From Candidatus Pullichristensenella excrementigallinarum (GTDB taxonomy: Bacteria > Bacillota > Clostridia > Christensenellales > Aristaeellaceae): a DNA stretch of 33,531 nucleotides. Location of the stretch: assembly GCA_018714825.1 (NCBI GenBank), contig DVMU01000186.1, positions 1-33,531 on the forward strand. Reading direction: 5' to 3'. The notes beneath the pieces are model-generated. The model was not told where the DNA came from. It made no database searches and saw only the letters and a program-made list of their open reading frames with translations. This document shows, piece by piece, positions 192 through 33,416 of this stretch; the first letter of the stretch is position 1; each line of letters starts with the position of its first letter. Made by a program: the position numbers and the translations under genes.

Positions 192-516
192 TAAAGTCAA
201 GGGAAAAAGCAAACGCGATGACGGAAACAAGTAGCCGCGGCAGGCCGAATGCAGAGAGTCCCCGGAGGGTGCGAGGGGATGGAGGCGGCCGGGGCGAATA
301 CATTCCTAAGCGGCCCGGGGGAACGGAGTAGCCCGGGACGGGTGGCGCCCGTGACAGCGCATCGAGAGGCCCAGGGGAAGAACGCGCGCATTGGCGCGCC
401 GAACCCCGCGGCAAAGGATTTCTTTGCCGGGTAACGCGCTTGCAAGACGGCGCTGGGCGAAATGGAAGTGGTACCGCGATACGTCGCCTTCCTCGGGGAA
501 GGCGGCGATTTTATTT
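192..516 (+). promoter_or_regulatory. T-box leader, tyrosine specifier
   Basis: The canonical T-box sequence GGAAGTGGTACCGCG lies at 464-478. Stem I elements are visible upstream: AAGTAG near 229, GCAGAGAG near 250 with a GGGTGCGAGGGG distal part, and the specifier region GCGAATACATTCC, in which TAC (299-301) is the specifier followed by the usual purine. TAC is a Tyr codon, matching tyrS in the downstream operon. In known T-boxes, uncharged cognate tRNA binds the specifier and stabilises an antiterminator, so genes are switched on by tyrosine shortage. Part of the terminator's left arm (CGCC, 485-488) can alternatively pair with GGCG near 449. The helix assignments are by eye; the specifier frame is the main inference. 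Confidence 0.93.
482..516 (+). terminator. T-box regulated terminator
   Basis: CGTCGCCTTCC pairs with GGAAGGCGGCG (11 bp with one G-U) around a TCGG loop, followed by TTTTATTT. It begins immediately after the T-box sequence, as expected for the terminator that competes with the T-box antiterminator. Confidence 0.92.
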
Positions 517-1771: not shown

Positions 1772-3004
1772 ATGAACGCACTGGATATCTTAAAGGAGCG
1801 CGGATTTCTCGCGCAGGTAACGTTTGAAGAGGAACTGCACAAGGCCTTTGACGAGGGAATGGTTACCTTTTATACGGGCTTTGATCCCACGGCGGACAGC
1901 CTGCACATCGGCCACTATATCCCGATCATGGCCATGGCGCATTTGCAGCGGGCGGGCCATCGCCCGATCGCGCTGATGGGCGGGGGCACCGGAATGATCG
2001 GCGACCCCTCCGGCAAAAGCGATCTGCGCAAGGTGCTTTCGGTGGAGGATATCGACCACAACGTTGCCTGCTTTAAAAAGCAGATGGCAAAGTTCCTGGA
2101 TTTTGATTCCGGAAAGCCCAACCAGGCCATCATCGCCAACAATGCCGATTGGCTTCGGAGCCTGAACTACATCGACTTTTTGCGCGATGTGGGCGCGCTG
2201 TTCTCGGTCAACCGCATGTTGACCGCCGAATGCTACAAACAGCGCATGGAAAAGGGCCTGACCTTCCTTGAGTTCAACTACATGATCATGCAGTCCTACG
2301 ATTTTCTGGAGCTGTTCCATCGCTATGGCTGCATCCTGCAGGCGGGAGGAGACGACCAGTGGTCGAACATGCTCTCGGGCGCGGATCTGATCCGGCGCAA
2401 GGAACAGAAGCCCGCGTTTGCGCTGACGTTCAAACTGCTCCTGACCTCCGACGGCCGCAAGATGGGCAAGACCGAGAAGGGCGCGCTGTGGCTGGATCCT
2501 AACAAGTGTTCTCCCTATGACTTCTATCAGTATTGGCGCAACGTGGGGGATGCGGACGTGGAAAAGTGCCTGGCGCTTTTGACCTTCCTGCCCATGGACG
2601 AGGTGCGCAGGCTCGGCGCGCTCAAGGATTCCGCCATCAACGAAGCCAAGCGCGTGCTGGCCTTTGAAGTCACCAAGCTGATTCACGGCGAAGAGGAAGC
2701 GATCAAGGCCCGAGACGCGGCCGAGGCGCTCTTCGGCGGCGGCGGATTGGCCGGCAGCGTGCCGACCACGCACATTCGGCCCGAGGATTTGGAGCAGGAT
2801 AACCGGCTGCTGGCATGGATCGCCCGCTGCGGCCTGTGCAAATCCAACGGCGAGGCGCGCAAGGCCATCCAGCAGGGCGGCGTCTCCATCGGCGAAGAAC
2901 GGGTGACCGATATCGATTTCCGCCTGACTCCGGAAATGCTTAGCGGAGAAGGCGTGCTCGTGCGCAAGGGCAAAAAGAGCTATCATCGCTTTGTGATGGA
3001 ATGA
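1772..3004 (+). CDS. tyrS: Tyrosyl-tRNA synthetase
   Basis: 410 aa, a normal length for bacterial TyrRS. Cytoplasmic; charges tRNA-Tyr. Seen: the class I HIGH signature (HIGH, residues 45-48, in SLHIGHYIP), [14 protein letters not shown] after it, the tyrosine/tRNA region [10 protein letters not shown], the second signature as KMGKT (residues 230-234), and a C-terminal S4-like RNA-binding domain (about 343-410, with [15 protein letters not shown]). AAGGAG precedes the ATG by 8-9 nt. Second gene of the Tyr T-box transcription unit, which is the usual control for tyrS in Firmicutes. Confidence 0.98.
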
Positions 3005-11254: not shown

Positions 11255-11471
11255 AGGACGGTTTCTCCGCCCGACCTGGTCTTTGCCCCCACACTCGCCG
11301 GCTGGGACGTTCGCTCCTAAGGCCTCTGCCTCCCCACTACTGGCCCTCTCAACCGAAGTTGGCCGGACTTACCTCTAGGCCGCACCATGCTCACCGGAAT
11401 TTTTCCTGCTTACGTGGGTCGTTTCGCCTGCGACTGGCATCGACTTTCAACCACGGACGCGGAGAAACCGC
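11255..11471 (-). ncRNA. Structured noncoding RNA, possibly raiA-motif RNA
   Basis: A roughly 215-nt gene-free stretch follows a strong promoter. Its two ends form a perfect 12-bp helix (CGGTTTCTCCGC at 11470-11459 with GCGGAGAAACCG at 11270-11259). Inside are further obvious helices, for example CAACTTCGGTTG with a UUCG loop, enclosed by GGCC...GGCC, and purine-rich unpaired runs such as GGCGAAACGACC and GGGGGCAAAGACC. There is no ribosome site with an ORF. Size, terminal helix and several of these strings recall the raiA RNA motif of Firmicutes and Actinobacteria; this match is from memory and unverified. It could also be a cis-acting leader of the YjjG-like gene 28 nt downstream. RNase P, tmRNA, 6S and SRP RNA were considered and do not fit. 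Confidence 0.62.
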
Positions 11472-23145: not shown

Positions 23146-23185
23146 GCGGCGGGATTCCCTTTGCGGGGCCCGCCGCTCTATTTTT
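23146..23185 (+). terminator. fprA terminator
   Basis: GCGGCGGG (23146-23153) pairs with CCCGCCGC (23169-23176), then TCTATTTTT. Its T-tract overlaps the last codons of convergent tyrA. The same hairpin lacks a T-tract on the - strand. Confidence 0.82.
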
Positions 23186-24032
23186 GCGCGCGGGATGCCT
23201 CGAGCGCTTCGCGGCGCGCGCGGGAAGTATCAAACAGCCGCACGAGCGCCTCTCGGTCGCCCGCCGCGATCGCGGACCGGATCTTTTCCAATTCCCGGCA
23301 AAATCCGTCGATTGCGCCCAGGAGATTCTCCCGGTTTTCCAGGAACAATTCGCTCCACAGGGCGGAATTGATCTTCGCGATGCGGGTCAGATCCCGATAG
23401 CTGTCGCCGATAAAGCGCCCGGTATCCCGGCCTTCTCGGTCGCTGTTGATCAGCGCCACGGCCATGGCGTGTGGGAGTTGAGAGGTAAAGGCGATGATTT
23501 CATCGTGGAATTGGGGACTGACGCGCCGAACGCCGGCAAACCCCAGTTCGCGCACGAGCGCTTCGAGCGTCCGGAGATGCTCTTCGGAATTGGAGGGCAG
23601 GGGCGTAAGGATGTAGTTGGCGCCCCGGAAGACCTCGGCCGAGGCAAAGTCGATGCCCCGCTTTTCCCGCCCGGCCATGGGATGCCCCAGGACAAAGTCC
23701 ACATCCGCGGGCAGGATCCCCGCGAGGCCGCTGGCCAGGCGGGTTTTGACGCCCGTTGCGTCGGTAACGAGGGAACCCGGGCGAAAGTGCTTTGCGTTTT
23801 CCTGCAAAAAGGGCAACACCGCTCCGGGATACAGGGCGAGGATGGTCAGATCCGCATGGGGCAGGATCCTTGCGGCCTCGGTTTCGGCCCCGAGGACCAT
23901 TCCGCGCCGCAGGGCGGTTTGGAGGGTTTCGGGATCGCGATCCACGCCGTAGACCTCCCGATAGCCCGCTTCCTTCAGCGCCAGGGCAAAGCTCCCGCCG
24001 ATCACGCCCAGGCCGATAATCGCAATGTTCAT
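23178..24032 (-). CDS. tyrA: Prephenate dehydrogenase
   Basis: 284 aa. Oxidative decarboxylation of prephenate to 4-hydroxyphenylpyruvate, the tyrosine branch. Seen: the dinucleotide motif IIGLGVIGGSFA with acidic GVDRD after beta-2 (NAD rather than NADP), DATGVK, GHPMAGREKRG with the catalytic His, and QLPHAMAVAL. It ends about 285 residues in, so the C-terminal ACT domain of Bacillus-type TyrA is missing; feedback by Tyr may therefore be absent at this enzyme. The ATG at 24032 overlaps the aroQ stop (ATGA). Last gene of the aro operon; no terminator of its own is visible. Confidence 0.95.
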   Translation of the reverse strand: MNIAIIGLGVIGGSFALALKEAGYREVYGVDRDPETLQTALRRGMVLGAETEAARILPHADLTILALYPGAVLPFLQENAKHFRPGSLVTDATGVKTRLASGLAGILPADVDFVLGHPMAGREKRGIDFASAEVFRGANYILTPLPSNSEEHLRTLEALVRELGFAGVRRVSPQFHDEIIAFTSQLPHAMAVALINSDREGRDTGRFIGDSYRDLTRIAKINSALWSELFLENRENLLGAIDGFCRELEKIRSAIAAGDREALVRLFDTSRARREALEASRAQK

Positions 24033-24481
24033 TTTTGTTCCTCCCGGGGATTTGCGCACAGTTCGAGCGCGCTCATGGCCAGGAGATATCCGTTCATGCC
24101 GAATCCCGCGATCTGCCCCAGGCAAGCCGGCGCCGTGACCGAGCGGCGGCGAAATTCGTCGCGCGCGTGGACATTGCTCAGATGGACCTCCACTGTGGGG
24201 ATGTGAACCGATTGAATCGCGTCGTGCAGGGCGTAGCTGTAATGCGTGTACGCGCCCGGATTGAAGAGAATCCCGTCGTATTTCTCAACGTATGCCTGCT
24301 GAATCCAGTCGATCAGCTGCCCCTCCCAATTGCTCTGCAGAATGGTCAGCGCATGGCCGCGACGCTTTGCCTCCAGCGCCACCGTCTCCATCATCGATTC
24401 ATAGGAAGTGTTTCCGTAAATTCCCGGCTCGCGGATTCCCGTGAAATTGAGATTGGGCCCGTTGAGGAGCATGATTTTCAT
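24029..24481 (-). CDS. aroQ: 3-Dehydroquinate dehydratase, type II
   Basis: 150 aa, dodecameric type II dehydroquinase, third step of the shikimate pathway. Seen: LNGPNLNFTGIREPGIYG with the catalytic Tyr on the flexible loop, QSNWEGQLIDWIQ, NPGAYTHYSYALHDAI, and VEVHLSNVHARDEFR with the catalytic His and the product-binding segment. The ATG at 24481 overlaps the aroK stop by 4 nt and has GGGAGGCGG upstream; the track start at 24565 runs back into aroK. Confidence 0.97.
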   Translation of the reverse strand: MKIMLLNGPNLNFTGIREPGIYGNTSYESMMETVALEAKRRGHALTILQSNWEGQLIDWIQQAYVEKYDGILFNPGAYTHYSYALHDAIQSVHIPTVEVHLSNVHARDEFRRRSVTAPACLGQIAGFGMNGYLLAMSALELCANPREEQK

Positions 24482-24993
24482 TTTTCCGCCTCCCATATGC
24501 TTTGAACGGCTTGCAAAAGCCGGTTTAGTCCCTCTTGCTGCGAAGAGTCGTTTTTCACGATGCAATCCGCGCTTGCGCGATAGAGGGAATCGCGCGCGTC
24601 GCGAATGGCGAGCAGGCGTTCGCGGCCCTGCGCGAGCAACGGCCGGTTCGAGGGGTCCACATCCCCCAGGATGTTTTCCACCGGGCGATCCAGAAACACG
24701 ATCGCGCCTGCGCCGCGCATCATCTGCACGTTTTCTTCCCGCAGGATCGCGCCGCCCCCGCAGGCGACCACCAGGTTTTTCCTCCGGCAGAGGGCGCGGC
24801 AGGCGCGCGTCTCCGCGTCGCGGAAGACTTCCTCTCCCCGGGCAAAGAGCTCGGGGATTTCCCGCCCTTCGCGCAGGACGATTTCCGCGTCCATATCGCA
24901 GAAATCCGCGCCCAGCTCCCGGGCCAGCAACTGCCCCAAGGTGGTCTTGCCCGCGCCCATCAGGCCGGTGAGAAAGATCAGGGACGTCTTCAT
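24478..24993 (-). CDS. aroK: Shikimate kinase
   Basis: 171 aa, P-loop kinase, fifth step of the shikimate pathway. Seen: FLTGLMGAGKTTLG (Walker A, residues 10-18), the DMDAEI acidic shikimate-binding region, CGGGAIL, and the LID arginine in RPLLAQGRERL. Overlaps aroE upstream and aroQ downstream by 4 nt each (ATGA), so translation is coupled across the block. Confidence 0.96.
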   Translation of the reverse strand: MKTSLIFLTGLMGAGKTTLGQLLARELGADFCDMDAEIVLREGREIPELFARGEEVFRDAETRACRALCRRKNLVVACGGGAILREENVQMMRGAGAIVFLDRPVENILGDVDPSNRPLLAQGRERLLAIRDARDSLYRASADCIVKNDSSQQEGLNRLLQAVQSIWEAEK

Positions 24994-25799
24994 CGGCTAA
25001 GGCCTCCTTCGCGCAACGCCCGGCCGATCGCCTCGCAGATTCCCTCGGGCACGGGTTCGCCCTGCCAGATCTCTTCGGAGGCCAGGGCCTGCTCGATGAG
25101 CATATACAGTCCGTTGGACACGTTCTTTCCCATTTCCCGGCCCAGACGCAAAAATTCCGTCTCTTCCGGATTGTAGATCAGATCCATCAGCGCGTCGAAT
25201 CGGGAAAGGACTTCCGCGCCCACCGGCGTATATCCCGCGTGGGGAAACATGCCCACCGGCGTGGCGTTGATCAGAAGATCGCCCGCCAGAGGCGCGTCAT
25301 AGCCCGAAAACCGCACGCGCGGATCGGGATGCGTCCGCCCCTCCGGCTGCCGGCTGACCACGGTGATTTCCCGCGCGCCGCCCTTGAGGAGCACCAACAC
25401 CGCCGCTTTTGCCGCGCCCCCGCTGCCCAGAACTGTGGCTTTCGCGCCGGAAAGGGAGACTCCCATGCGCAGAAGGGCACGGCTGAGCCCCAGGACATCC
25501 GTGTTATAGCCCACCAGCCGATCGCCCTGTAGGCATAGCGTGTTGACCGCGCCCGCCTCCCGGGCCAGGGGATCGATTTCGTCCAGATAGGGCAGGATTG
25601 CCTGCTTATAGGGAATGGTGACGTTGAGCCCCCGGAACCGGAAAAGCCGGATCGCCTCCGGCAGAAGAGAGAGCTTCTCGGGAGGGATCTCCAAAAGCCG
25701 GTACGCGCCCTCCTTTCCGGTCAGGGAAAAATACATCTGATGAATTTGCGGGGAGAGGCTGTGGCCGAGCTTTTCCCCGATCAGGCCGTAGAATTCCAT
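24990..25799 (-). CDS. aroE: Shikimate dehydrogenase
   Basis: 269 aa, NADP(H)-linked reduction of 3-dehydroshikimate, fourth step. Seen: SLSP at residues 14-17 and NVTIPYK with catalytic K65, then NTD in YNTDVLGL for substrate binding, the nucleotide motif LGSGGAAKA followed by VVSRQ (Arg as NADP-type determinant), and NATPVGMFP. The ATG is 2 nt after the pheA stop, with GGAGG 7 nt upstream. Confidence 0.97.
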   Translation of the reverse strand: MEFYGLIGEKLGHSLSPQIHQMYFSLTGKEGAYRLLEIPPEKLSLLPEAIRLFRFRGLNVTIPYKQAILPYLDEIDPLAREAGAVNTLCLQGDRLVGYNTDVLGLSRALLRMGVSLSGAKATVLGSGGAAKAAVLVLLKGGAREITVVSRQPEGRTHPDPRVRFSGYDAPLAGDLLINATPVGMFPHAGYTPVGAEVLSRFDALMDLIYNPEETEFLRLGREMGKNVSNGLYMLIEQALASEEIWQGEPVPEGICEAIGRALREGGLSR

Positions 25800-25801
25800 G
25801 C

Positions 25802-26926
25802 TTACGCCTCCTCTCCCTTGCGATAGAGCCCCAATAGACGCAGCGCCTGGGTATCGGGCTCGATTTCGCGAAGCGTCCGGCGCAGTTTTCCCAGCTGCAA
25901 TTCGCCCTCAAAATCCGCGTAGAAGACGTATTCCCAGGGCCTTTGCGGGATGGGACGGCTCTCCAGGCGGGTCATGTTCAGATCGTATTCGGAAAAGCGG
26001 TTGAGCACCCGTGCCAGAGCGCCGGGTTGGTTGCGCGTGTTGAAGACCACCGAGGCCTTTTCCGCGCGCGGATCATCAACCATTTCCCGCGAGACGATGA
26101 CAAACCGGGTGTGGTTTTTCTTATCCTCGTGAATGTCGGCGGCGAGGATGTTCAGCCCATAGCGCTCCGCCGCGCGGGAAGAGGCGATGGCGGCCTGCGA
26201 GGGATCGCCATCCTGGAATACCTTGTTGGCGCTGATGGCCGTGTTCTTGTAGGGAATGAGCTGCCAATCCGGATGGGCGTGCAAAAACTCCCCGCATTGC
26301 GCGATGCCTTGCGCGTGGGAATAGACGCGCCGGATATCCGAGAGCTTCGCGCCCGGAAGCGCGAGCAAATGCTGCCGGATGCGCACGTTCTGTTCGCCGA
26401 CAATGAACAGGCGCTCCCGGCTGATGCAGTCGTAGCATTCGGAAATGGTGCCGGTGGAGGAATTTTCAATGGGTACGACGCCATAGTCCGCGCGTTTCTC
26501 GCGCACGGCGCAGGCGACTTCTTCCAGCGAGGGGAAGCAGACCCGCCGCGCCGGCGGGCCGAAGAACTGCATCGCCGCCTGTTCGGAGAACGCGCCCTCC
26601 ACGCCGAAATAGCCCACCAGCGGATCCTGGATCCATTCGGCGCCCGCGCTTTCCGGGGCGGAAGGCAACAGCCGCCGCTGCGCGGCCTTGCTCAGATGCA
26701 AAATTTCCCGGTACAGCGCGCGCACGTCCCGCCGATTTTCCTCGGGCACGCAGGCTTCCGCGCGATCCAGAACGACCTGTTCGCGACCGGCCTGCAGCAC
26801 TTCCATGCCGTGTTCCAATTTATAGCGCGCCACCGCTTCGCTCACTTGCATCCGCCGGGCGAAGAGGGGGGCGATTTGCGCGTCGATTTCGTCGATCTGG
26901 GCGCGGTAATCCGTCAAATCCGGCAT
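25802..26926 (-). CDS. pheA: Bifunctional chorismate mutase / prephenate dehydratase
   Basis: 374 aa, three domains: an AroQ-class chorismate mutase helix bundle (about 1-85; YRAQIDEIDAQIAPLFARR), prephenate dehydratase (about 105-285; GYFGVEGAFSEQAA, VPIENSSTGTISE, HTRFVIV with the catalytic TRF), and a C-terminal ACT domain (about 290-370). The ACT part retains both phenylalanine-binding signatures, PGAL and ESRP, so feedback inhibition by Phe is expected. The mutase also feeds TyrA, which has none of its own. ATG 26926 has AAGGAGG 8 nt upstream and overlaps aroC by 13 nt. The fused form is more usual in proteobacteria than in Bacillus. Confidence 0.96.
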   Translation of the reverse strand: MPDLTDYRAQIDEIDAQIAPLFARRMQVSEAVARYKLEHGMEVLQAGREQVVLDRAEACVPEENRRDVRALYREILHLSKAAQRRLLPSAPESAGAEWIQDPLVGYFGVEGAFSEQAAMQFFGPPARRVCFPSLEEVACAVREKRADYGVVPIENSSTGTISECYDCISRERLFIVGEQNVRIRQHLLALPGAKLSDIRRVYSHAQGIAQCGEFLHAHPDWQLIPYKNTAISANKVFQDGDPSQAAIASSRAAERYGLNILAADIHEDKKNHTRFVIVSREMVDDPRAEKASVVFNTRNQPGALARVLNRFSEYDLNMTRLESRPIPQRPWEYVFYADFEGELQLGKLRRTLREIEPDTQALRLLGLYRKGEEA

Positions 26927-28008
26927 GAGAGCACCTCCTTCAACTGATCGTAGAGGACAATGGCGCACGCGGCTTCGACGACCGGCACCGCGCGCGGGAC
27001 GATGCAGGGATCGTGTCGCCCGGGAACCGAGATCTCCGTCTCTTCCTTTCGGGAGAGGGAGACGGTCTTTTGCTTTTTGGCAATGGACGGCGTGGGCCGC
27101 ACGGCCACGCGAAACAGCAGGGGCATTCCATTGGCGATTCCGCCTTGAATACCTCCGGAGAAATTCGTTTCGCAGGCAATTTCTCCGTCCTTGAGGCAGA
27201 AGGCGTCGTTGACTTCGCTGCCCAGGCGTTCGGCCGCTTCAAAGCCCAGCCCGAATTCCACGCCCTTGATGGCGGGAATGGAGAACAGAACGTGCGCCAG
27301 ATCGGATTCCAGGGAATCAAAGAACGGATTGCCTGTTCCTGCGGGAACGCCCGTCGCCCAGCATTCGATCACGCCGCCCACCGAATCCCCCTCGCGCTTG
27401 GCGCAGAGGATGGCCTCCCGCATCTTTTCCGCGGCCTCGGGATCGATCGTGGGCAGTTCGCGCGCGCAAAGCGCGGCGCGCGCCTCGTCAGAGAGGCGCA
27501 GAGGGTCCAAAGGCGCATCGTGAATTCCACGAATGGAAGCGATGCGGGCGGAAATTTCGATGCCCTGCGCGCGAAGGATCTGTTTGGCCACCGCGCCCGC
27601 GAAGACCAACGGCGCGGTGATGCGCCCGGAAAAGTGGCCGCCGCCGCGATAATCCTGGAATCCGCAATAGCGCATCTGCGCCGTATAATCCGCGTGCCCG
27701 GGGCGGGGGAGATCCCGCAGAAGCGAATAATCCCTGGAACGCGTGTCGCGATTGCGCAGAATCGCGCACAGCGGCGCGCCAGTGGTTTTTCCCTCAAAAA
27801 AGCCGCTGAGGATTTCGGGGAAGTCCTCCTCCCTGCGCGGGGTGGAAAGATTGCTGCGTCCCGGAGCGCGGCGCGAAAGCTCGAAGGCGATCGCGTCCAA
27901 ATCGAGGGCAAAGCCCGCGGGCAAACCGCTCAGGACGATGCCAATGGCCGGACCATGGGATTCTCCGAAGATGGAAAGTTGGAAATGCCGTCCCCATTCA
28001 TTGCTCAT
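26914..28008 (-). CDS. aroC: Chorismate synthase
   Basis: 364 aa, FMN-dependent, seventh and last step to chorismate. Seen: the N-terminal GRHFQLSIFGESHG signature, RPGHADYTAQMRY, RGGGHFSGRITAPLVFAGA, and the C-terminal RHDPCIVPRAVPV. The ATG at 28008 has GGGAGGG upstream and lies inside the end of aroA (11-nt overlap); the track start at 28149 adds 47 unlike residues. Confidence 0.98.
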   Translation of the reverse strand: MSNEWGRHFQLSIFGESHGPAIGIVLSGLPAGFALDLDAIAFELSRRAPGRSNLSTPRREEDFPEILSGFFEGKTTGAPLCAILRNRDTRSRDYSLLRDLPRPGHADYTAQMRYCGFQDYRGGGHFSGRITAPLVFAGAVAKQILRAQGIEISARIASIRGIHDAPLDPLRLSDEARAALCARELPTIDPEAAEKMREAILCAKREGDSVGGVIECWATGVPAGTGNPFFDSLESDLAHVLFSIPAIKGVEFGLGFEAAERLGSEVNDAFCLKDGEIACETNFSGGIQGGIANGMPLLFRVAVRPTPSIAKKQKTVSLSRKEETEISVPGRHDPCIVPRAVPVVEAACAIVLYDQLKEVLSCRI

Positions 28009-29260
28009 GCACGCGCCCTCCCAATCTGACAAAATCGCCGAAGAAATCCGGGTAGGATTTGGCCACGCATTCGGCGCGGGGAATTTCCACCGGTCCCCGC
28101 GCGCCCGCGCCCGCGATCGCGAGGAACATGGCCATGCGATGATCGCCATAGCTCTCGGCCGCGCAGCCCTGCCATTCGCCTCCGCCGGAGATGATCAGCC
28201 GGTCGTCCCGGATTTCCGCCCTTGCGCCGAGCCGGGTCAGCTCGCGGCAGGTCGCCTCCAGCCGGTCGCATTCCTTGAGGCGCAAGCGCGCGGCGTTCTC
28301 AATCACCGTGACGCCCGCGGCCCGGGAGGCCACCAGGGCCAGGATGGGGATGATGTCCGGGCAATCCGCAGCGTCGATGGTCGTGCCGTGCAGATTTTGC
28401 GCGCGGACGAGCACGCGATCCCCTTCCCACACGGCCTCGGCGCCCATGCGGCCGAGAATATCCAGCACCACGCGATCGCCCTGCCGCGAATCCGGGGACA
28501 TGCCGCAAACCCAGATCCGGGCGCCCAGCGCATCCGCCGCCAGCCACACCGCAGCCTGCGACCAATCGCCCTCCACCTGGAAATCCACGGGGCGAAAGAC
28601 CTGACCGCCGGGCACGAAGTAGCCGTCCTCCCGGCAATCGACGCGGACGCCAAATCTTTGGAGCACCTCCAGCGTGCAATCGACATAGCTTGCCGATTGC
28701 AGGGGCGTGGTCAGGCGAATTCGGGAATCGCCTTCCAGAAGGGGAAGCGCCAGGAGAAGGCCGGTGACGAACTGGCTGGACACATCCCCGCGCAGCGGAA
28801 ATTCGCCGCTGTGCAGGCGGCCGCAAACCTGCAGATCGAGCTTCTCTCCAGGCGCTTTTTCCCAGGAGATCCCCTGCCGGACAAAGAGATCCCGATAGGG
28901 ATCGAGCGGGCGAGAGGCCAACCGTCCCCGGCCCCGAAAGCGCGCCCCGCCGCACAGCGCGAGCGAGAGCGGCAATAAAAACCGCAGCGTGGAGCCCGAT
29001 TCCAGGCAGTCGATTTCCGCGGGTGCGCACATCTCGCGGCGCGATGCAAACCGAAGGGCCTGCCCCTCCTCCCGGAAGGCGGCGCCCAGCGCCCGCAGGC
29101 CGGAAAGCGTGGCGCGGATGTCTTCGGATTCCGCCGGGGGGAAGACGGTGTTTCCTCCCGCCAGGGCGGAGCAGATCAGGGCGCGATGCAGGATGCTCTT
29201 GGAAGGGGGCGCCTGCACCTCTCCGGAGAGGGCACCGGGGAAAACTGTCAGGCGAGGCAT
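27998..29260 (-). CDS. aroA: 3-Phosphoshikimate 1-carboxyvinyltransferase (EPSP synthase)
   Basis: 420 aa, sixth step. Two-domain inverse alpha/beta barrel. Seen: PPSKSILHRALI (the usual GSKS is PSKS), ESGSTLRFLLPL, GDVSSQFVTGLLLALP, EGDWSQAAVWL, DCPDIIPILA, RLKECDRLEA and SYGDHRMAM. Residues lining the PEP site cannot be classed with confidence by eye, so no statement is made on inhibitor sensitivity. Overlaps aroB by 13 nt. Confidence 0.97.
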   Translation of the reverse strand: MPRLTVFPGALSGEVQAPPSKSILHRALICSALAGGNTVFPPAESEDIRATLSGLRALGAAFREEGQALRFASRREMCAPAEIDCLESGSTLRFLLPLSLALCGGARFRGRGRLASRPLDPYRDLFVRQGISWEKAPGEKLDLQVCGRLHSGEFPLRGDVSSQFVTGLLLALPLLEGDSRIRLTTPLQSASYVDCTLEVLQRFGVRVDCREDGYFVPGGQVFRPVDFQVEGDWSQAAVWLAADALGARIWVCGMSPDSRQGDRVVLDILGRMGAEAVWEGDRVLVRAQNLHGTTIDAADCPDIIPILALVASRAAGVTVIENAARLRLKECDRLEATCRELTRLGARAEIRDDRLIISGGGEWQGCAAESYGDHRMAMFLAIAGAGARGPVEIPRAECVAKSYPDFFGDFVRLGGRVHEQ

Positions 29261-30306
29261 TGTTCCACCCCCTCGAAGAATTCGCGGTTTGTGGAATAGA
29301 GATAACCTTCTCCCGACCTGCGCACGAGCACCACCGTCAGATGATCGCCCAGGTTCTTTTTGTCATTTTGGAGGGCGGCGCGCACCTTTTCCCAATCCAG
29401 CGCGCCCGCCCGCACCGGCAGGCCGATCTGCGCAAGACGCGCTGCGATGGCCTCGGCTGTTCCCGGCTCGGTCAGGCCGCGCGCCTGCGCCAGGCGGGTG
29501 ATCGCCAGCATTCCAAGGCCCACCGCCTCGCCATGGGTAAAGCCGGAAAAATTCTGCGAGGCTTCGATCGCGTGGCCCACGGTATGCCCGAAATTGAGCA
29601 GCATCCGCTCGCCCCGGTCGCGCTCATCCGTCTCGACCACGCGCCGCTTCCAATCGCAGGAACGGAAAAGGACTTCCTCGATCCGATCGGGATCCTGCAA
29701 AAGATCCAGAAGCGTGGGGTCAAACAAAAAGCCGTACTTGATCACTTCGCCCATGCCGTCCCGGAACACGCGCGGGGGAAGGGTCTGGAGCACATCCGGA
29801 TCGATCAAAACGAGCTTCGGCTGATGGAACGCGCCCACGAGGTTTTTCCCCCAGGGCATGTCCACGGCCACCTTGCCGCCCACCGAGCTGTCCACCTGCG
29901 CCAAGAGAGAGGTGGGAACCTGCACAAACGGCAATCCGCGCAAAAAGGTCGCCGCCGCGAAGCCGCCCAAATCGCCGATGACCCCGCCGCCCAGGGTCAG
30001 CACCAGATCCGCGCGGGTCAGGTGAAAATCGCTCATGGCGCGATAGATTTCCGGCAGCGTATCGAACCGCTTGGTCTGTTCCCCGGCAGGGAGCGCCAGC
30101 CGACGAACGCGCATCCCCATCTCGCGGAGGGAATTTTCGGCCGTCGCCCCATAGAGGGCGTCCACGTTTTGATCCGTCAACAGGAACGCGCGGCCACCTG
30201 CGCAGAACGGGCGAACTTTGGATCCCAGATCTTTCAAAAGTCCGCGCCCAAAGAGGATGTCGTAGCTCTTATCTCCCAAATGGATGGGAAGGCATCGGCT
30301 GTCCAT
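29248..30306 (-). CDS. aroB: 3-Dehydroquinate synthase
   Basis: 352 aa, NAD- and metal-dependent cyclisation of DAHP, second step. Seen: GEQTKRFDTL, the glycine-rich GGGVIGDLGGFAAATFLRG, PTSLLAQVDSSVGGK, GMGEVIKYG and the metal site NFGHTVGHAIE with a later HGEAVGLGM. The ATG at 30306 follows GGGGAGG by 8 nt and lies 14 nt after aroF; the track start at 30510 lies inside aroF. Confidence 0.97.
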   Translation of the reverse strand: MDSRCLPIHLGDKSYDILFGRGLLKDLGSKVRPFCAGGRAFLLTDQNVDALYGATAENSLREMGMRVRRLALPAGEQTKRFDTLPEIYRAMSDFHLTRADLVLTLGGGVIGDLGGFAAATFLRGLPFVQVPTSLLAQVDSSVGGKVAVDMPWGKNLVGAFHQPKLVLIDPDVLQTLPPRVFRDGMGEVIKYGFLFDPTLLDLLQDPDRIEEVLFRSCDWKRRVVETDERDRGERMLLNFGHTVGHAIEASQNFSGFTHGEAVGLGMLAITRLAQARGLTEPGTAEAIAARLAQIGLPVRAGALDWEKVRAALQNDKKNLGDHLTVVLVRRSGEGYLYSTNREFFEGVEQCLA

Positions 30307-30320
30307 GGTTTTTCCTCCCC

Positions 30321-31337
30321 TCAGGCGATCTTGCGGCCCACGGCCTGGGCGATGGTGCGCACATCCCGCATCAGATTCGCGAACACTTCCGGCTTGATGG
30401 ATTGCTGGCCGTCGCACAGCGCGTGGACCGGATCGTTGTGGACTTCGATCATCAGCCCGTCCGCGCCCACGGCAATGGCGGCCTTGGCCAAAGGCTCGAC
30501 CATCCACCATTTTCCGGTGGCGTGGCTGGGATCGACGAGCACCGGCAGGCAGCTCATCTTTTTGATCGCCGGGATGGCGCTCAGATCAATGGTATTGCGG
30601 GTGTAGGTTTCAAACGTGCGGATGCCGCGCTCGCAGAGGATGACGTTTTCATTGCCCTCGCACATGATGTATTCGGCGCTCATCAACCATTCCTCAATCG
30701 TTGCGGAAAGTCCGCGCTTGAGGAGAACGGGCTTTTTGCAGCGGCCGAGCTGGCGCAAGAGGTCAAAATTCTGCATGTTGCGCGCGCCCACCTGGATCAG
30801 ATCGACTTCCTCTTCAAAGATGTCGATGTCGGCGGGGGACATAATTTCGGAGACAATGGGCATCCCCGTCTTTTCGCGCGCCTCGATCAGCAATTTGAGG
30901 CCGTCGTATTTCAGTCCCTGGAAGGCATAGGGGGACGTGCGGGGCTTGAACGCGCCGCCGCGCAAGAGGTTGGCGCCCATCCGCTTGACGTCGCCGGCTA
31001 CCTGACAGATCTGCTCCTCGCTTTCCACGGAACACGGCCCTGCGATGATGGTCAGCGCCTCTCCGCCGATCTTCACGCCGGATACGTCCACCACCGTGTC
31101 GTCGGGATGAAACGCGCGATTGGCTTTCTTAAACGGCTCCGCGACATGGATGATCTTTTCCACACAGGGATCGGCCTCAACCCTGGTGGGGTCAACCCGG
31201 GTGGTATCCCCGATCAGGCCCAGGATGGTGAGGTTTTTTCCATAGACAGGATTGACTTCCACGCCCATTTTTGTCAGTTTATCTGCCAATGCCTCGACTT
31301 GCGATTTTCCCGTGCCAGCCTTCAAAACGACGACCAT
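30321..31337 (-). CDS. aroF: 3-Deoxy-7-phosphoheptulonate synthase, type I-beta with regulatory N-terminal domain
   Basis: 338 aa, first committed step (PEP + erythrose 4-phosphate). Residues 1-70 form an extra ferredoxin/ACT-like domain (MVVVLKAGTGKSQVEALADK), as in the 338-residue Thermotoga maritima enzyme, where this domain mediates Tyr/Phe inhibition. The barrel shows IIAGPCSVES, LRGGAFKPRTSPYAFQG, KPVLLKRG, ILCERGIRTFE and DPSHATG. The track start at 31403 lies upstream of the attenuator terminator; ATG 31337 has AGGAGG 8 nt upstream. First gene of the aro operon, behind a Phe/Tyr attenuator. Confidence 0.97.
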   Translation of the reverse strand: MVVVLKAGTGKSQVEALADKLTKMGVEVNPVYGKNLTILGLIGDTTRVDPTRVEADPCVEKIIHVAEPFKKANRAFHPDDTVVDVSGVKIGGEALTIIAGPCSVESEEQICQVAGDVKRMGANLLRGGAFKPRTSPYAFQGLKYDGLKLLIEAREKTGMPIVSEIMSPADIDIFEEEVDLIQVGARNMQNFDLLRQLGRCKKPVLLKRGLSATIEEWLMSAEYIMCEGNENVILCERGIRTFETYTRNTIDLSAIPAIKKMSCLPVLVDPSHATGKWWMVEPLAKAAIAVGADGLMIEVHNDPVHALCDGQQSIKPEVFANLMRDVRTIAQAVGRKIA

Positions 31338-31367
31338 AGCCATTTCCTCCTGTGTTTGGGGAGATAC

Positions 31368-31396
31368 AAAAAGGAGAGCTCCTTTCCGAGCTCTCC
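31368..31396 (-). terminator. Attenuator terminator in the aro operon leader
   Basis: On the - strand GGAGAGCT, an 8-nt loop (cggaaagg), AGCTCTCC, then TTTTT. It stands 31 nt before the aroF start codon and after the leader ORF, so it would stop transcription before the operon unless it is prevented from folding. Confidence 0.93.
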
Positions 31397-31451
31397 TCAA
31401 CATCTCCCAAAAGATCTGTGCGGATCAGATAAACGCTCTTTGGAAAGGAAG
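31381..31451 (-). promoter_or_regulatory. Antiterminator of the aro leader
   Basis: The RNA segment CCTTTCC-AAA-GAGC (31448-31435), inside the last leader codons, can pair with GCTC-GGAAAGG (31391-31381): 11 pairs with an AAA bulge. The second strand takes the end of the terminator's left arm and its whole loop, so the two structures exclude each other. The same first strand, CTTCCTTTCCAAAG (31451-31438), is also complementary at 13 of 14 positions (two G-U) to the leader's ribosome-site segment CTTTGGAGGAGAAG (31565-31552), a possible anti-antiterminator. No energies were calculated. Confidence 0.72.
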
Positions 31452-31550
31452 AATATCCATGCAGAAATAGCCGTAGCCAAAATAGCTACGGATCGTAAAG
31501 TAAAACGCGCACAGAACGCTTTTTACGCTACGCTTGCTGCAAAGATCCAT
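31425..31550 (-). CDS. Phe/Tyr-rich attenuation leader peptide of the aro operon
   Basis: A 41-codon ORF too short for the track. GGAGGAGAAGG lies directly before the ATG (31550), and the TGA is at 31427-31425. Residues 16-29 read FYFTIRSYFGYGYF: four Phe and four Tyr in 14 positions, with two more Phe (36, 40) later. In ribosome-mediated attenuation such codon runs stall the ribosome when the cognate charged tRNA is scarce. A stalled ribosome at codons 23-29 leaves the antiterminator strand (31448-31435) free; a ribosome reaching the stop codon covers it and lets the terminator form. A hairpin CCGTAGC/GCTACGG (7 bp) overlaps the Tyr/Phe codons and could act as the pause hairpin. The peptide itself shows no domain. 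The operon it precedes makes exactly Phe and Tyr. Confidence 0.9.
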   Translation of the reverse strand: MDLCSKRSVKSVLCAFYFTIRSYFGYGYFCMDILPFQRAFI

Positions 31551-31587
31551 CCTTCTCCTCCAAAGTGTCTTTCAAATCCTTGCGAAC

Positions 31588-31616
31588 ATTATAGGGCGGA
31601 AGCGAAAATTCGTCAA
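31588..31616 (-). promoter_or_regulatory. Promoter of the aro operon
   Basis: On the - strand TTGACG (31616-31611), 17-bp spacer, perfect TATAAT (31593-31588). Start near 31581 gives a leader of about 245 nt before aroF. The gene-free stretch 31338-31758 is thus fully explained by promoter, leader ORF, attenuator and the terminator at 31717. Confidence 0.92.
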
Positions 31617-31758: not shown

Positions 31759-32283
31759 TTACGCTTCCTGGGTCTGCGCCTCTTCCATGAGAATCTCTAC
31801 GGCCAGCGCGTTGATCCTCGGCGGCAGGGACATGGTCATTACGCCGTTAAAATAGATCGTCACTTCCTGCCCCACTTCCAGGCCCATGCCTTCCGGAAGG
31901 GTTGCGAAGACATCGCCGTTCTCCTTGCTGGAGACCAGGATCCCCTCCTCGGAAACTTCTGCAACGGTGCCATGCACCGCATAGACGGAGATCTTATCCG
32001 CCGTGATCTGCGCCGGGCGGGAACGCGTCATCTGGCCATCGTAATCTACCAACGCATACTGCCCCGCGGCCAGGGAATCCTCCGTATTTTCAATTACCGT
32101 ATCCTCGGAAAGAAGAACCATGACTTCCCCGGAATCGCCCATATCCATCAGGATTCCGTCTTCCTGCACTTCAAGGATCCAACCTTCCAGATGGAAGGAC
32201 ATGATTTCCTGCGCGCCTTCCTCGGCAAATGCAAACGGGATTGCCAGCGCAAGGATCATAAGCAAAGCCAAGCATTTTTTCAT
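31759..32283 (-). CDS. Secreted protein with two homologous beta-rich repeats, unknown function
   Basis: 174 aa. Signal peptide: MKKCLALLMILALAIPFAFA, cleavage probable at AFA-EE. The mature part is two similar units of about 60-65 residues: unit 1 LEGWILEVQEDGILM...GEVMVLL...YDGQMTRSRPAQITADKI and unit 2 VHGTVAEVSEEGILV...GDVFATL...FNGVMTMSLPPRINALAV. The strand-turn pattern suggests small beta-barrels (OB-like), but I recognise no family. Acidic overall. The first Cys (position 4) is not in a lipobox context. ATG 32283 has AAGGAGG 8 nt upstream; the track start at 32373 is too long. Promoter not clear. Confidence 0.85.
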   Translation of the reverse strand: MKKCLALLMILALAIPFAFAEEGAQEIMSFHLEGWILEVQEDGILMDMGDSGEVMVLLSEDTVIENTEDSLAAGQYALVDYDGQMTRSRPAQITADKISVYAVHGTVAEVSEEGILVSSKENGDVFATLPEGMGLEVGQEVTIYFNGVMTMSLPPRINALAVEILMEEAQTQEA

Positions 32284-32299
32284 ATCGTCAACCTCCTTG

Positions 32300-32322
32300 G
32301 TGAGCTTGTTTTGTTTGCTCAC
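32300..32322. repeat. Inverted repeat before the secreted-protein gene
   Basis: GTGAGC/GCTCAC (6 bp, 11-nt A/T-rich spacer) lies just upstream of the ribosome site. It could be an mRNA 5' hairpin or a weak operator. There is no T-tract. Confidence 0.35.
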
Positions 32323-32369
32323 GCAAGTAAGACGAAGCAGGCCAAGAAACGGTTCCCTCGCAAAAAAGA

Positions 32370-33416
32370 TCATTCTATGGCGAGAATGCGGCCCTCCTCT
32401 CCGCTTCGATAGGCCGATTCCATGATGCGCTGCACGCGAACCGCATCCCGCGCGGGCACTTCCAGCCGAGCGCCGGTTAAGATCGAATGGGAAAAGCTCT
32501 CGATTTCGCGCGTGTAGAGGTTGCCGAATTCCCCGGGGATCTCCACGCCCGCCTCATCCTGATGATCCTGGCCGGGATCGTATTGCCGATCTCCTTCCAA
32601 AAACAGCGCGTTGAGGGCGCCGCCGTCTATCTGTCCGATGATGGTATCACCCATCAGCCTGCCGCGGGTGCCGAAAAATTCCATGCGCCATTTCGCGGCC
32701 TCGTCGGGAATGTTGAAATTGGTCTGCACCACGCACTGCGCGCCGTTTTCCATGCGCAGAAGCAGCGTGGAGGTGTCCTCGACATCGTAGGAAAAGGTAA
32801 TGGTTTCATTCAGGGCGGCAACGCGCGTGACGCGCATTCCGGTAATGTATTCCATCAAATCGATGGTATGCACGCCCATATCCATCATGCAGCCGCCGCC
32901 CGAGCGGGCTTTTTCCAGCCGCCAGTTGCCCGCGCCGTCGGGGAGCCATAGGGTAAATTGCGAATAACCGGAAACGACCTGGCCGATTTTTCCCTGCGCG
33001 ATGGCGTTTTTCATGTTGCGGACATGGCTGCCGAAGCGCATCATCAGGCCCGCGCCGATTTGCACGCCGCGCTGCGCGCAGTAATCCAGAACCTGCTGCC
33101 CTTCCGTGCTGGTCATGGCCACGGGTTTTTCCAGCAGAATGTGCTTGCGATAGTCCGCCGCCAAGCGCGCCTGTCGCGCGTGCTCGACCACGGGGGAGGC
33201 AATGTATACCGCGTCCACCTCGGGATCGCTCAAAAGATCCTCTTCGCGCGCATAGGCGCGCCGCGCGCCGTATTTTTGCTTGAGTTGTTCGGCAAAATCC
33301 TGTCGAATCTCCATTACGGCTACCAATTCGGCATTTTGCGCCTGAAGCATTCCGGGAATCGTGCGCCGATCCGCGATGCCGCCTGCGCCGATAACCCCCC
33401 AACGAAGTTTTTCCAT
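32370..33416 (-). CDS. Gfo/Idh/MocA-family oxidoreductase
   Basis: 348 aa. N-terminal Rossmann domain with WGVIGAGGIADRRTIPGM and the family lysine motif LEKPVAMT (about residues 95-102). The C-terminal substrate domain has GGGCMMDMGVHTIDLMEY, whose D and H are the usual catalytic residues. Members are NAD(P)-dependent dehydrogenases of sugars, inositols or related polyols; the substrate is undetermined and no sugar genes lie alongside. ATG 33416 with GGAGG 8 nt upstream; own promoter upstream. 86 nt separate it from the secreted-protein gene. Confidence 0.94.
   Translation of the reverse strand: MEKLRWGVIGAGGIADRRTIPGMLQAQNAELVAVMEIRQDFAEQLKQKYGARRAYAREEDLLSDPEVDAVYIASPVVEHARQARLAADYRKHILLEKPVAMTSTEGQQVLDYCAQRGVQIGAGLMMRFGSHVRNMKNAIAQGKIGQVVSGYSQFTLWLPDGAGNWRLEKARSGGGCMMDMGVHTIDLMEYITGMRVTRVAALNETITFSYDVEDTSTLLLRMENGAQCVVQTNFNIPDEAAKWRMEFFGTRGRLMGDTIIGQIDGGALNALFLEGDRQYDPGQDHQDEAGVEIPGEFGNLYTREIESFSHSILTGARLEVPARDAVRVQRIMESAYRSGEEGRILAIE

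What the first reader, a model, noticed from the sequence alone, without database searches (positions are those of the whole stretch)
31425..31550. Unlisted Phe/Tyr-rich leader peptide ahead of a nine-gene aro operon
The sequence shows a 41-codon ORF with a strong ribosome site and eight aromatic residues (4 Phe, 4 Tyr) in a 14-residue run, between a near-consensus promoter and a terminator that precedes aroF. This is the layout of ribosome-mediated attenuation, best known from proteobacterial trp, phe and his operons; Firmicutes generally use T-boxes or TRAP for this task. Mixed Phe plus Tyr codons would tune the common aromatic pathway to both end products.
Basis: partly seen in the sequence, partly recalled or inferred. 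Interest (0 to 1): 0.92.

Follow-up and report, generated by a model that had tools for sequence, protein, structure and literature searches.

The report
Phe/Tyr leader-peptide attenuator of aro operon
A short peptide gene packed with phenylalanine and tyrosine codons sits in front of this bacterium's aromatic amino acid operon and very probably acts as a starvation sensor that switches the operon on; the same arrangement recurs ahead of the same first gene at roughly half of the sampled loci across the class Clostridia, where tRNA-sensing T-boxes were the expected solution.

Summary
Window 31550..31425(-) encodes MDLCSKRSVKSVLCAFYFTIRSYFGYGYFCMDILPFQRAFI, with 8 Phe/Tyr in codons 16-29. It lies between a near-consensus promoter and a terminator ahead of aroF-aroB-aroA-aroC-pheA-aroE-aroK-aroQ-tyrA. 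Relatives carry a short SD-led ORF rich in Phe/Tyr upstream of aroF: 52/109 loci (dinucleotide shuffles average 0.4), 42/73 further same-family loci, and 56/100 class-wide loci in 28 of 44 families. T-boxes occur only at aroF loci without it. The end of the ORF pairs with the terminator's 5' arm more than shuffles in three samples (mean z -1.3, -1.5, -2.0). In-ORF RNA structure exceeds synonymous recodings. Folding the window with a ribosome stalled on the Phe/Tyr codons gives an antiterminator (0.94); a ribosome at the stop codon, or none, gives the terminator. For the window alone the antiterminator is not better than shuffles. Best reading: classical ribosome-mediated transcription attenuation by charged tRNA-Phe/Tyr. 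The mechanism is known, and aroF leaders are known in C. glutamicum (aroR) and Acholeplasma (uORFC-13-1). I found no report of the Clostridia-wide family in the open-access library, and Rfam has no model. No expression data were available.

The parts
31588..31616 (-). Promoter-like TTGACG-17-TATAAT
   Evidence: 11 of 12 matches; -10-like hexamers lie 15-65 nt ahead of 118 of 147 related leaders, shuffles 54.4 sd 5.3
31550..31561 (-). Shine-Dalgarno region of the leader (GGAGGAGAAGGA); also segment 1 of a protector fold that pairs with the end of the ORF when no ribosome is present
   Evidence: sequence; folds
31425..31550 (-). Leader peptide ORF, 41 codons, MDLCSKRSVKSVLCAFYFTIRSYFGYGYFCMDILPFQRAFI
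   Evidence: counterparts
31464..31505 (-). Sensing cluster, codons 16-29, 4 Phe and 4 Tyr
   Evidence: 8 of 14 is not reached in any of 40 shuffles of 109 upstream regions
31471..31491 (-). Hairpin CCGUAGCUAUUUUGGCUACGG inside the Phe/Tyr cluster (candidate pause hairpin), position kept in nearest relatives
31435..31450 (-). Segment 2 (UUCCUUUCCAAAGAGC), last codons of the ORF; antiterminator 5' strand
   Evidence: antiterminator probability 0.94 with a stalled ribosome; not significant for the window alone, z -0.32
31379..31391 (-). Segment 3 (GCUCGGAAAGGAG), terminator 5' arm and loop; antiterminator 3' strand
31371..31398 (-). Intrinsic terminator, 11 bp stem, -20.1 kcal/mol, U-rich tail
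30321..31340 (-). aroF, DAHP synthase (NF006421, TIGR01361), first gene of the regulated operon
29248..30306 (-). aroB, 3-dehydroquinate synthase (start inferred)
27998..29260 (-). aroA, EPSP synthase
26914..28008 (-). aroC, chorismate synthase (start inferred)
25802..26926 (-). pheA, chorismate mutase/prephenate dehydratase with ACT domain (start inferred)
24990..25799 (-). aroE, shikimate dehydrogenase
24478..24993 (-). aroK, shikimate kinase
24029..24481 (-). aroQ, type II dehydroquinase (start inferred)
23178..24032 (-). tyrA, prephenate dehydrogenase (start inferred)

Best explanation
A ribosome-mediated transcription attenuator. Transcription starts about 30 nt before the leader ORF and a ribosome follows RNA polymerase. 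With enough charged tRNA-Phe and tRNA-Tyr the ribosome reaches the stop codon and covers segment 2 (the last codons), so the terminator forms and the aro operon stays off. When Phe- or Tyr-tRNA is uncharged the ribosome stalls in codons 16-29 and leaves segment 2 free. Segment 2 then pairs with the terminator's 5' arm as it emerges, and polymerase reads into aroF-tyrA. Without translation, the leader's start region pairs with segment 2 and the terminator forms. Shown here by computation: the ORF, its class-wide recurrence, the terminator, excess complementarity and excess in-ORF structure in relatives, and the behaviour of the folds. Inferred: translation, stalling, regulation by charged tRNA, and the relative weight of Phe and Tyr.
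For: Phe/Tyr-rich SD-led ORF upstream of aroF in 52/109 loci (0.4 in shuffles), 42/73 further same-family loci and 56/100 class-wide loci in 28 of 44 families. In the class-wide sample, 50 of 55 distinct leaders have a terminator. Segment 2 and the terminator arm are more complementary than shuffles in all three samples: mean z -1.33, n=49; -1.46, n=35; -2.01, n=50; pooled p 2.5e-12, 3e-11 and 2.6e-21, with relatedness not corrected for. Pairing partners differ in sequence between clades (CUAAUGAGU/ACUCAUUAG; AGUGAGGUUUUA/GGGAAUCUCACU; GCGGUUUGUGCG/GCACAAACCG). In-ORF RNA structure exceeds synonymous recodings in 86 leaders: mean z -1.89, and p 6e-14 when only synonymous codons within the ORF are permuted. 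Ribosome-state folding of the window: stalled gives antiterminator 0.94; at stop gives antiterminator 0.00; none gives terminator 0.98. T-box motifs at 13 class-wide aroF loci, none with a leader; Rfam T-boxes directly upstream of aroF only in leaderless L064, L080, L083, L090, L095, none in the leader loci scanned. Operon content fits: pheA and tyrA are in it and no trpE was found in the genome.
Against: No expression, ribosome profiling or term-seq data. For the window alone the antiterminator is not better than shuffles (z -0.32, p 0.34), and it wins only in the nascent transcript before the 3' arm is made. About half of the aroF loci sampled have no leader by this rule, and 16 of 51 second-set leaders gave no terminator with my finder. 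Loci are related, so pooled p values are too small.
Confidence: 0.9

Rival explanations
1. A T-box or another ligand- or tRNA-binding RNA controls the operon and the ORF is incidental.
For: T-boxes are the usual solution in this phylum; this genome has 14 T-box matches, one in this same window.
Against: No T-box or other Rfam family at the aroF leader, even at relaxed thresholds. T-boxes and leaders never co-occur at aroF in the loci scanned. The ORF's amino acid content is kept across 28 families while its length and sequence change.
Confidence: 0.03
2. The nascent peptide itself is an arrest peptide that senses free Phe/Tyr (TnaC-like); the kept [FY]FSxG[YF] motif is the arrest sequence.
For: In a hand-picked set of 13 leaders, two columns of the aromatic region (F18, G27) are invariant and the consensus is FYFSxGYF.
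Against: Other clades have quite different leaders with only the aromatics in common, such as MRHCFYFTFTIPGGFAVPGV. The motif overlaps an RNA hairpin, which can explain it. Phe codons prefer UUU (183:39 against 155:154 in aroF), which suggests selection on codons or RNA.
Confidence: 0.05
3. The leader couples translation to aroF (re-initiation or SD exposure) rather than transcription termination.
For: Some leaders have no terminator by my finder.
Against: A strong terminator with a U tract lies between leader and aroF in the window and in most relatives; 84 nt separate the ORF's end from aroF.
Confidence: 0.04

Closest known systems
Corynebacterium glutamicum aroR leader peptide upstream of aroF (PMC4046766; PMC11802643 citing Neshat et al. 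2014)
   Same: Leader ORF with Phe-Tyr-Phe codons ahead of a DAHP synthase gene; transcription rises under Phe limitation by ribosome stalling.
   Different: Actinobacteria; one short FYF run. Here 6-11 aromatic residues in 14 codons, in low-GC and high-GC Clostridia, heading (in the window) an operon that includes pheA and tyrA. Sequence homology to aroR was not tested.
uORFC-13-1 motif (PMC8632094)
   Same: Upstream ORF with Phe codons ahead of aroF, before an intrinsic terminator; attenuation proposed.
   Different: 24 representatives reported only from Acholeplasma and environmental sequences. Its alignment was not available, so whether it is one branch of the family seen here could not be tested.
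E. coli pheL-pheA and trpL-trpE leaders (Rfam Phe_leader, Trp_leader)
   Same: Mechanism: stalling codons, mutually exclusive antiterminator and terminator, transcription attenuation.
   Different: No Rfam match; different gene controlled; mixed Phe and Tyr codons.
His and branched-chain leader attenuators in Firmicutes (PMC2965389, PMC9413887, PMC5794164)
   Same: Leader-peptide attenuation in Gram-positives, replacing T-boxes or repressors.
   Different: Different amino acids and genes; the his attenuators were reported in 17 genomes in PMC9413887.
T-box riboswitch (RF00230)
   Same: Senses tRNA charging to control an intrinsic terminator; used at aroF in some relatives.
   Different: No T-box at the window's aroF and none at any leader-bearing aroF locus scanned.

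Membership tests
Ribosome-mediated leader-peptide transcription attenuator | Short translatable ORF with its own ribosome site ahead of the operon | tested here: met
Ribosome-mediated leader-peptide transcription attenuator | Run of codons for the amino acid(s) the operon makes, kept in relatives | tested here: met
   8 Phe/Tyr in 14 codons; 52/109, 42/73, 56/100 loci; pheA and tyrA in the operon
Ribosome-mediated leader-peptide transcription attenuator | Intrinsic terminator between leader ORF and first gene | tested here: met
   (50 of 55 class-wide leaders)
Ribosome-mediated leader-peptide transcription attenuator | Antiterminator excluded by a ribosome at the stop codon and allowed by a stalled one | tested here: inconclusive
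   Window folds as required but its pairing alone is not better than shuffles; met statistically across relatives
Ribosome-mediated leader-peptide transcription attenuator | Read-through rises when the cognate tRNA is uncharged | not testable with these tools
   Needs an experiment
T-box riboswitch | Stem I with specifier and T-box sequence (RF00230) | tested here: not met
   at the aroF leader
Rfam Phe_leader / Trp_leader | Match to the covariance model | tested here: not met
   no match even at E<=5
uORFC-13-1 | aroF uORF with Phe codons directly before a terminator | tested here: met
   Described features present (text)
uORFC-13-1 | Match to the published consensus model | not testable with these tools
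C. glutamicum aroR | Homologous leader sequence | not tested
   Only the Phe-Tyr-Phe content is quoted in the papers read

The most novel reading that the evidence does not exclude
A class-wide, ancestral Clostridia sensor whose codon mix is tuned to the aromatic amino acids each species makes (Phe and Tyr, plus Trp where trpE is present), with the nascent peptide motif [FY]FSxG[YF] contributing to arrest in one large clade.
Probability: 0.12. Interest if true: 0.8.

Novelty: new member of a known kind. Interest (0 to 1): 0.62.

Why it matters
Control of the first committed step of aromatic biosynthesis in Clostridia seems to rest, in about half of the sampled loci, on an unannotated leader peptide rather than a T-box, and the Rfam library does not contain it. 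It gives a large natural series of leaders with varying Phe:Tyr:Trp content, in which multi-amino-acid sensing by one ribosome and the exchange of T-boxes for leader peptides can be tested directly.

Tried and rejected
The first leader scan missed all loci whose match lay on the minus strand, because genome-search loci are not turned; corrected. Window-only antiterminator statistics gave nothing (z -0.32), so the mechanism rests on the relatives. Weak Rfam matches to the leader (sbrA E 0.012, rli43, animal miRNAs) are far below gathering scores and were rejected. Chance from AT-rich sequence was rejected by dinucleotide shuffles and by GC-rich examples. A test of whether Trp in the leader follows trpE was positive but weak (odds ratio 3.7, p 0.011, relatedness not corrected), so it is not used as main evidence. 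Looking for comparable trp and his leaders in the same genome failed because no trpE or hisG was found.

Full report
OBSERVATION. On the minus strand, 31550..31425 reads MDLCSKRSVKSVLCAFYFTIRSYFGYGYFCMDILPFQRAFI and stops at TGA. The cluster FYFTIRSYFGYGYF (codons 16-29) has 4 Phe and 4 Tyr. A GGAGGAG ribosome site precedes the ATG, an 11-of-12 sigma-70-type promoter lies at 31616..31588, and an 11-bp terminator at 31398..31371. The 260-nt leader folds far better than shuffles (z -6.8). Pfam confirms aroF, aroB, aroA, aroC, pheA, aroE, aroK, aroQ and tyrA, all co-directional.

RELATIVES. AroF relatives were collected from the window's family, from named genomes and from an even sample of the class. 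The rule was an ATG ORF of 12-70 codons, SD-led, 50-420 nt before aroF, scored by F/Y/W in the best 14 codons. At a score of 6 or more, 52 of 109 loci pass, against 0.4 per shuffled set and 0.7% upstream of other genes. In 73 further same-family loci 42 pass, and in 100 class-wide loci 56 pass, from 28 of 44 families. The nearest relative (L008/L037, AroF 76% identical) has MNAVQVKVTPSSVFYFTSRSYFSFGFFCCNKIPQRRVSL; Clostridium cibarium (L040) has MEGMVKEVLAKSYSFFYFIFWGFYFSAGYLFCKKKNKSFLMSV. MAGs labelled Synergistaceae (L101), Fusobacteriaceae (L093) and Candidatus Avacidaminococcus (L099) carry similar ORFs. ORF length and sequence vary; the aromatic cluster stays. -10-like hexamers precede 118 of 147 leaders (shuffles 54.4).

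STRUCTURES. Terminators follow most leaders. The stretch from the last aromatic codon to the terminator was compared with the terminator's 5' arm and loop, against dinucleotide shuffles of that stretch. Mean z is -1.33 (49 loci), -1.46 (35) and -2.01 (50). The pooled p values (2.5e-12, 3e-11, 2.6e-21) ignore relatedness and are too small, but the effect repeats in three samples and the partners change sequence together between clades. Segment 2 usually lies in the last codons or just after the stop, where a terminating ribosome would cover it. The ORF's own RNA is more structured than synonymous recodings (86 leaders, mean z -1.89; within-ORF permutation p 6e-14), which fits a pause or protector hairpin; in the window it is CCGUAGCUAUUUUGGCUACGG over RSYFGYG. 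Phe codons in leaders prefer UUU (183:39) compared with aroF (155:154).

MECHANISM IN THE WINDOW. With codons up to the stall site masked, the nascent transcript pairs UUCCUUUCC-AAA-GAGC (31450..31435) with GCUC-GGAAAGGAG (31391..31379) at mean probability 0.94, for all eight Phe/Tyr codons of codons 16-29 tried as stall sites. With a ribosome at the stop codon this pairing is 0.00 and the completed transcript forms the terminator at 0.98. With no ribosome the leader start pairs with segment 2 and the terminator forms. At equilibrium the finished terminator always wins, so the switch must act during transcription, as in classical attenuators. The window's own pairing is not better than shuffles (z -0.32); this is the weakest link.

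ALTERNATIVES. No T-box or other Rfam family matches at the aroF leader. In relatives T-boxes and leaders exclude each other: Rfam T-boxes directly ahead of aroF in L064, L080, L083, L090, L095, all leaderless; T-box motifs in 13 of 100 class-wide loci, none with a leader; no Rfam T-box in leader loci. The genome does use T-boxes elsewhere (14 matches, 2 above the cut-off), including one in this window with a UAC (Tyr) triplet at the specifier position, ahead of an aminotransferase gene and tyrS. So the same organism appears to sense Tyr-tRNA by two devices.

BIOLOGY. No trpE was found in this 92%-complete genome, so the aro operon would mainly serve Phe and Tyr, matching a leader with no Trp. 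Across 80 leader-bearing genomes, Trp in the leader is commoner where trpE is found (14 of 28 against 11 of 52; p 0.011, relatedness not corrected). This is suggestive only.

KNOWN OR NEW. The mechanism is textbook. For this gene, C. glutamicum aroR (Phe-Tyr-Phe; responds to Phe, not Tyr) is known (PMC4046766, PMC11802643), and uORFC-13-1 was proposed ahead of aroF in Acholeplasma (24 sequences, PMC8632094). In Firmicutes, his leaders (PMC2965389, PMC9413887) and a leucine-rich ilv attenuator in S. aureus (PMC5794164, title and abstract only) are known. Nine searches of the open-access library found no report of a Clostridia-wide aroF leader family, though subscription papers (for instance Lopatovskaya et al. 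2010, cited in PMC4833913) could not be read. I therefore call it a new, unusually widespread member of a known kind.

Noticed in passing
window 209-494 (+): T-box (RF00230, 63 bits, below the 93-bit gathering score, E 1.7e-13) with GAA-UAC at the specifier position (Tyr), ahead of a PLP aminotransferase gene (574-1752), tyrS (1772-3004) and a YigZ-family gene; a second Tyr-tRNA sensor in the same window.
   Followed up: partly
window 11262-11467 (-): raiA RNA (RF03072), 197 bits, above the gathering threshold.
   Followed up: no
G000 genome: No anthranilate synthase component I (PF04715) and no HisG (PF01634) found in this 92%-complete assembly; possible Trp and His auxotrophy or missing contigs.
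   Followed up: no
L117-L189 and earlier loci, e.g. genomes G068, G093, G075, G245: Genomes with two aroF-type DAHP synthases can carry a separate Phe/Tyr-rich leader in front of each.
   Followed up: partly
leaders of the L037-L116 set: Phe codons in leaders are strongly biased to UUU (183:39) compared with the downstream aroF (155:154), and Tyr to UAU (80:43 against 80:94); unexplained, possibly slower wobble decoding or RNA structure.
   Followed up: partly
window 31759-32373 (-): Gene of a putative exported protein with a weak DUF3221 match directly upstream of the promoter, followed by its own terminator-like hairpin before the aro promoter (sequence).
   Followed up: no
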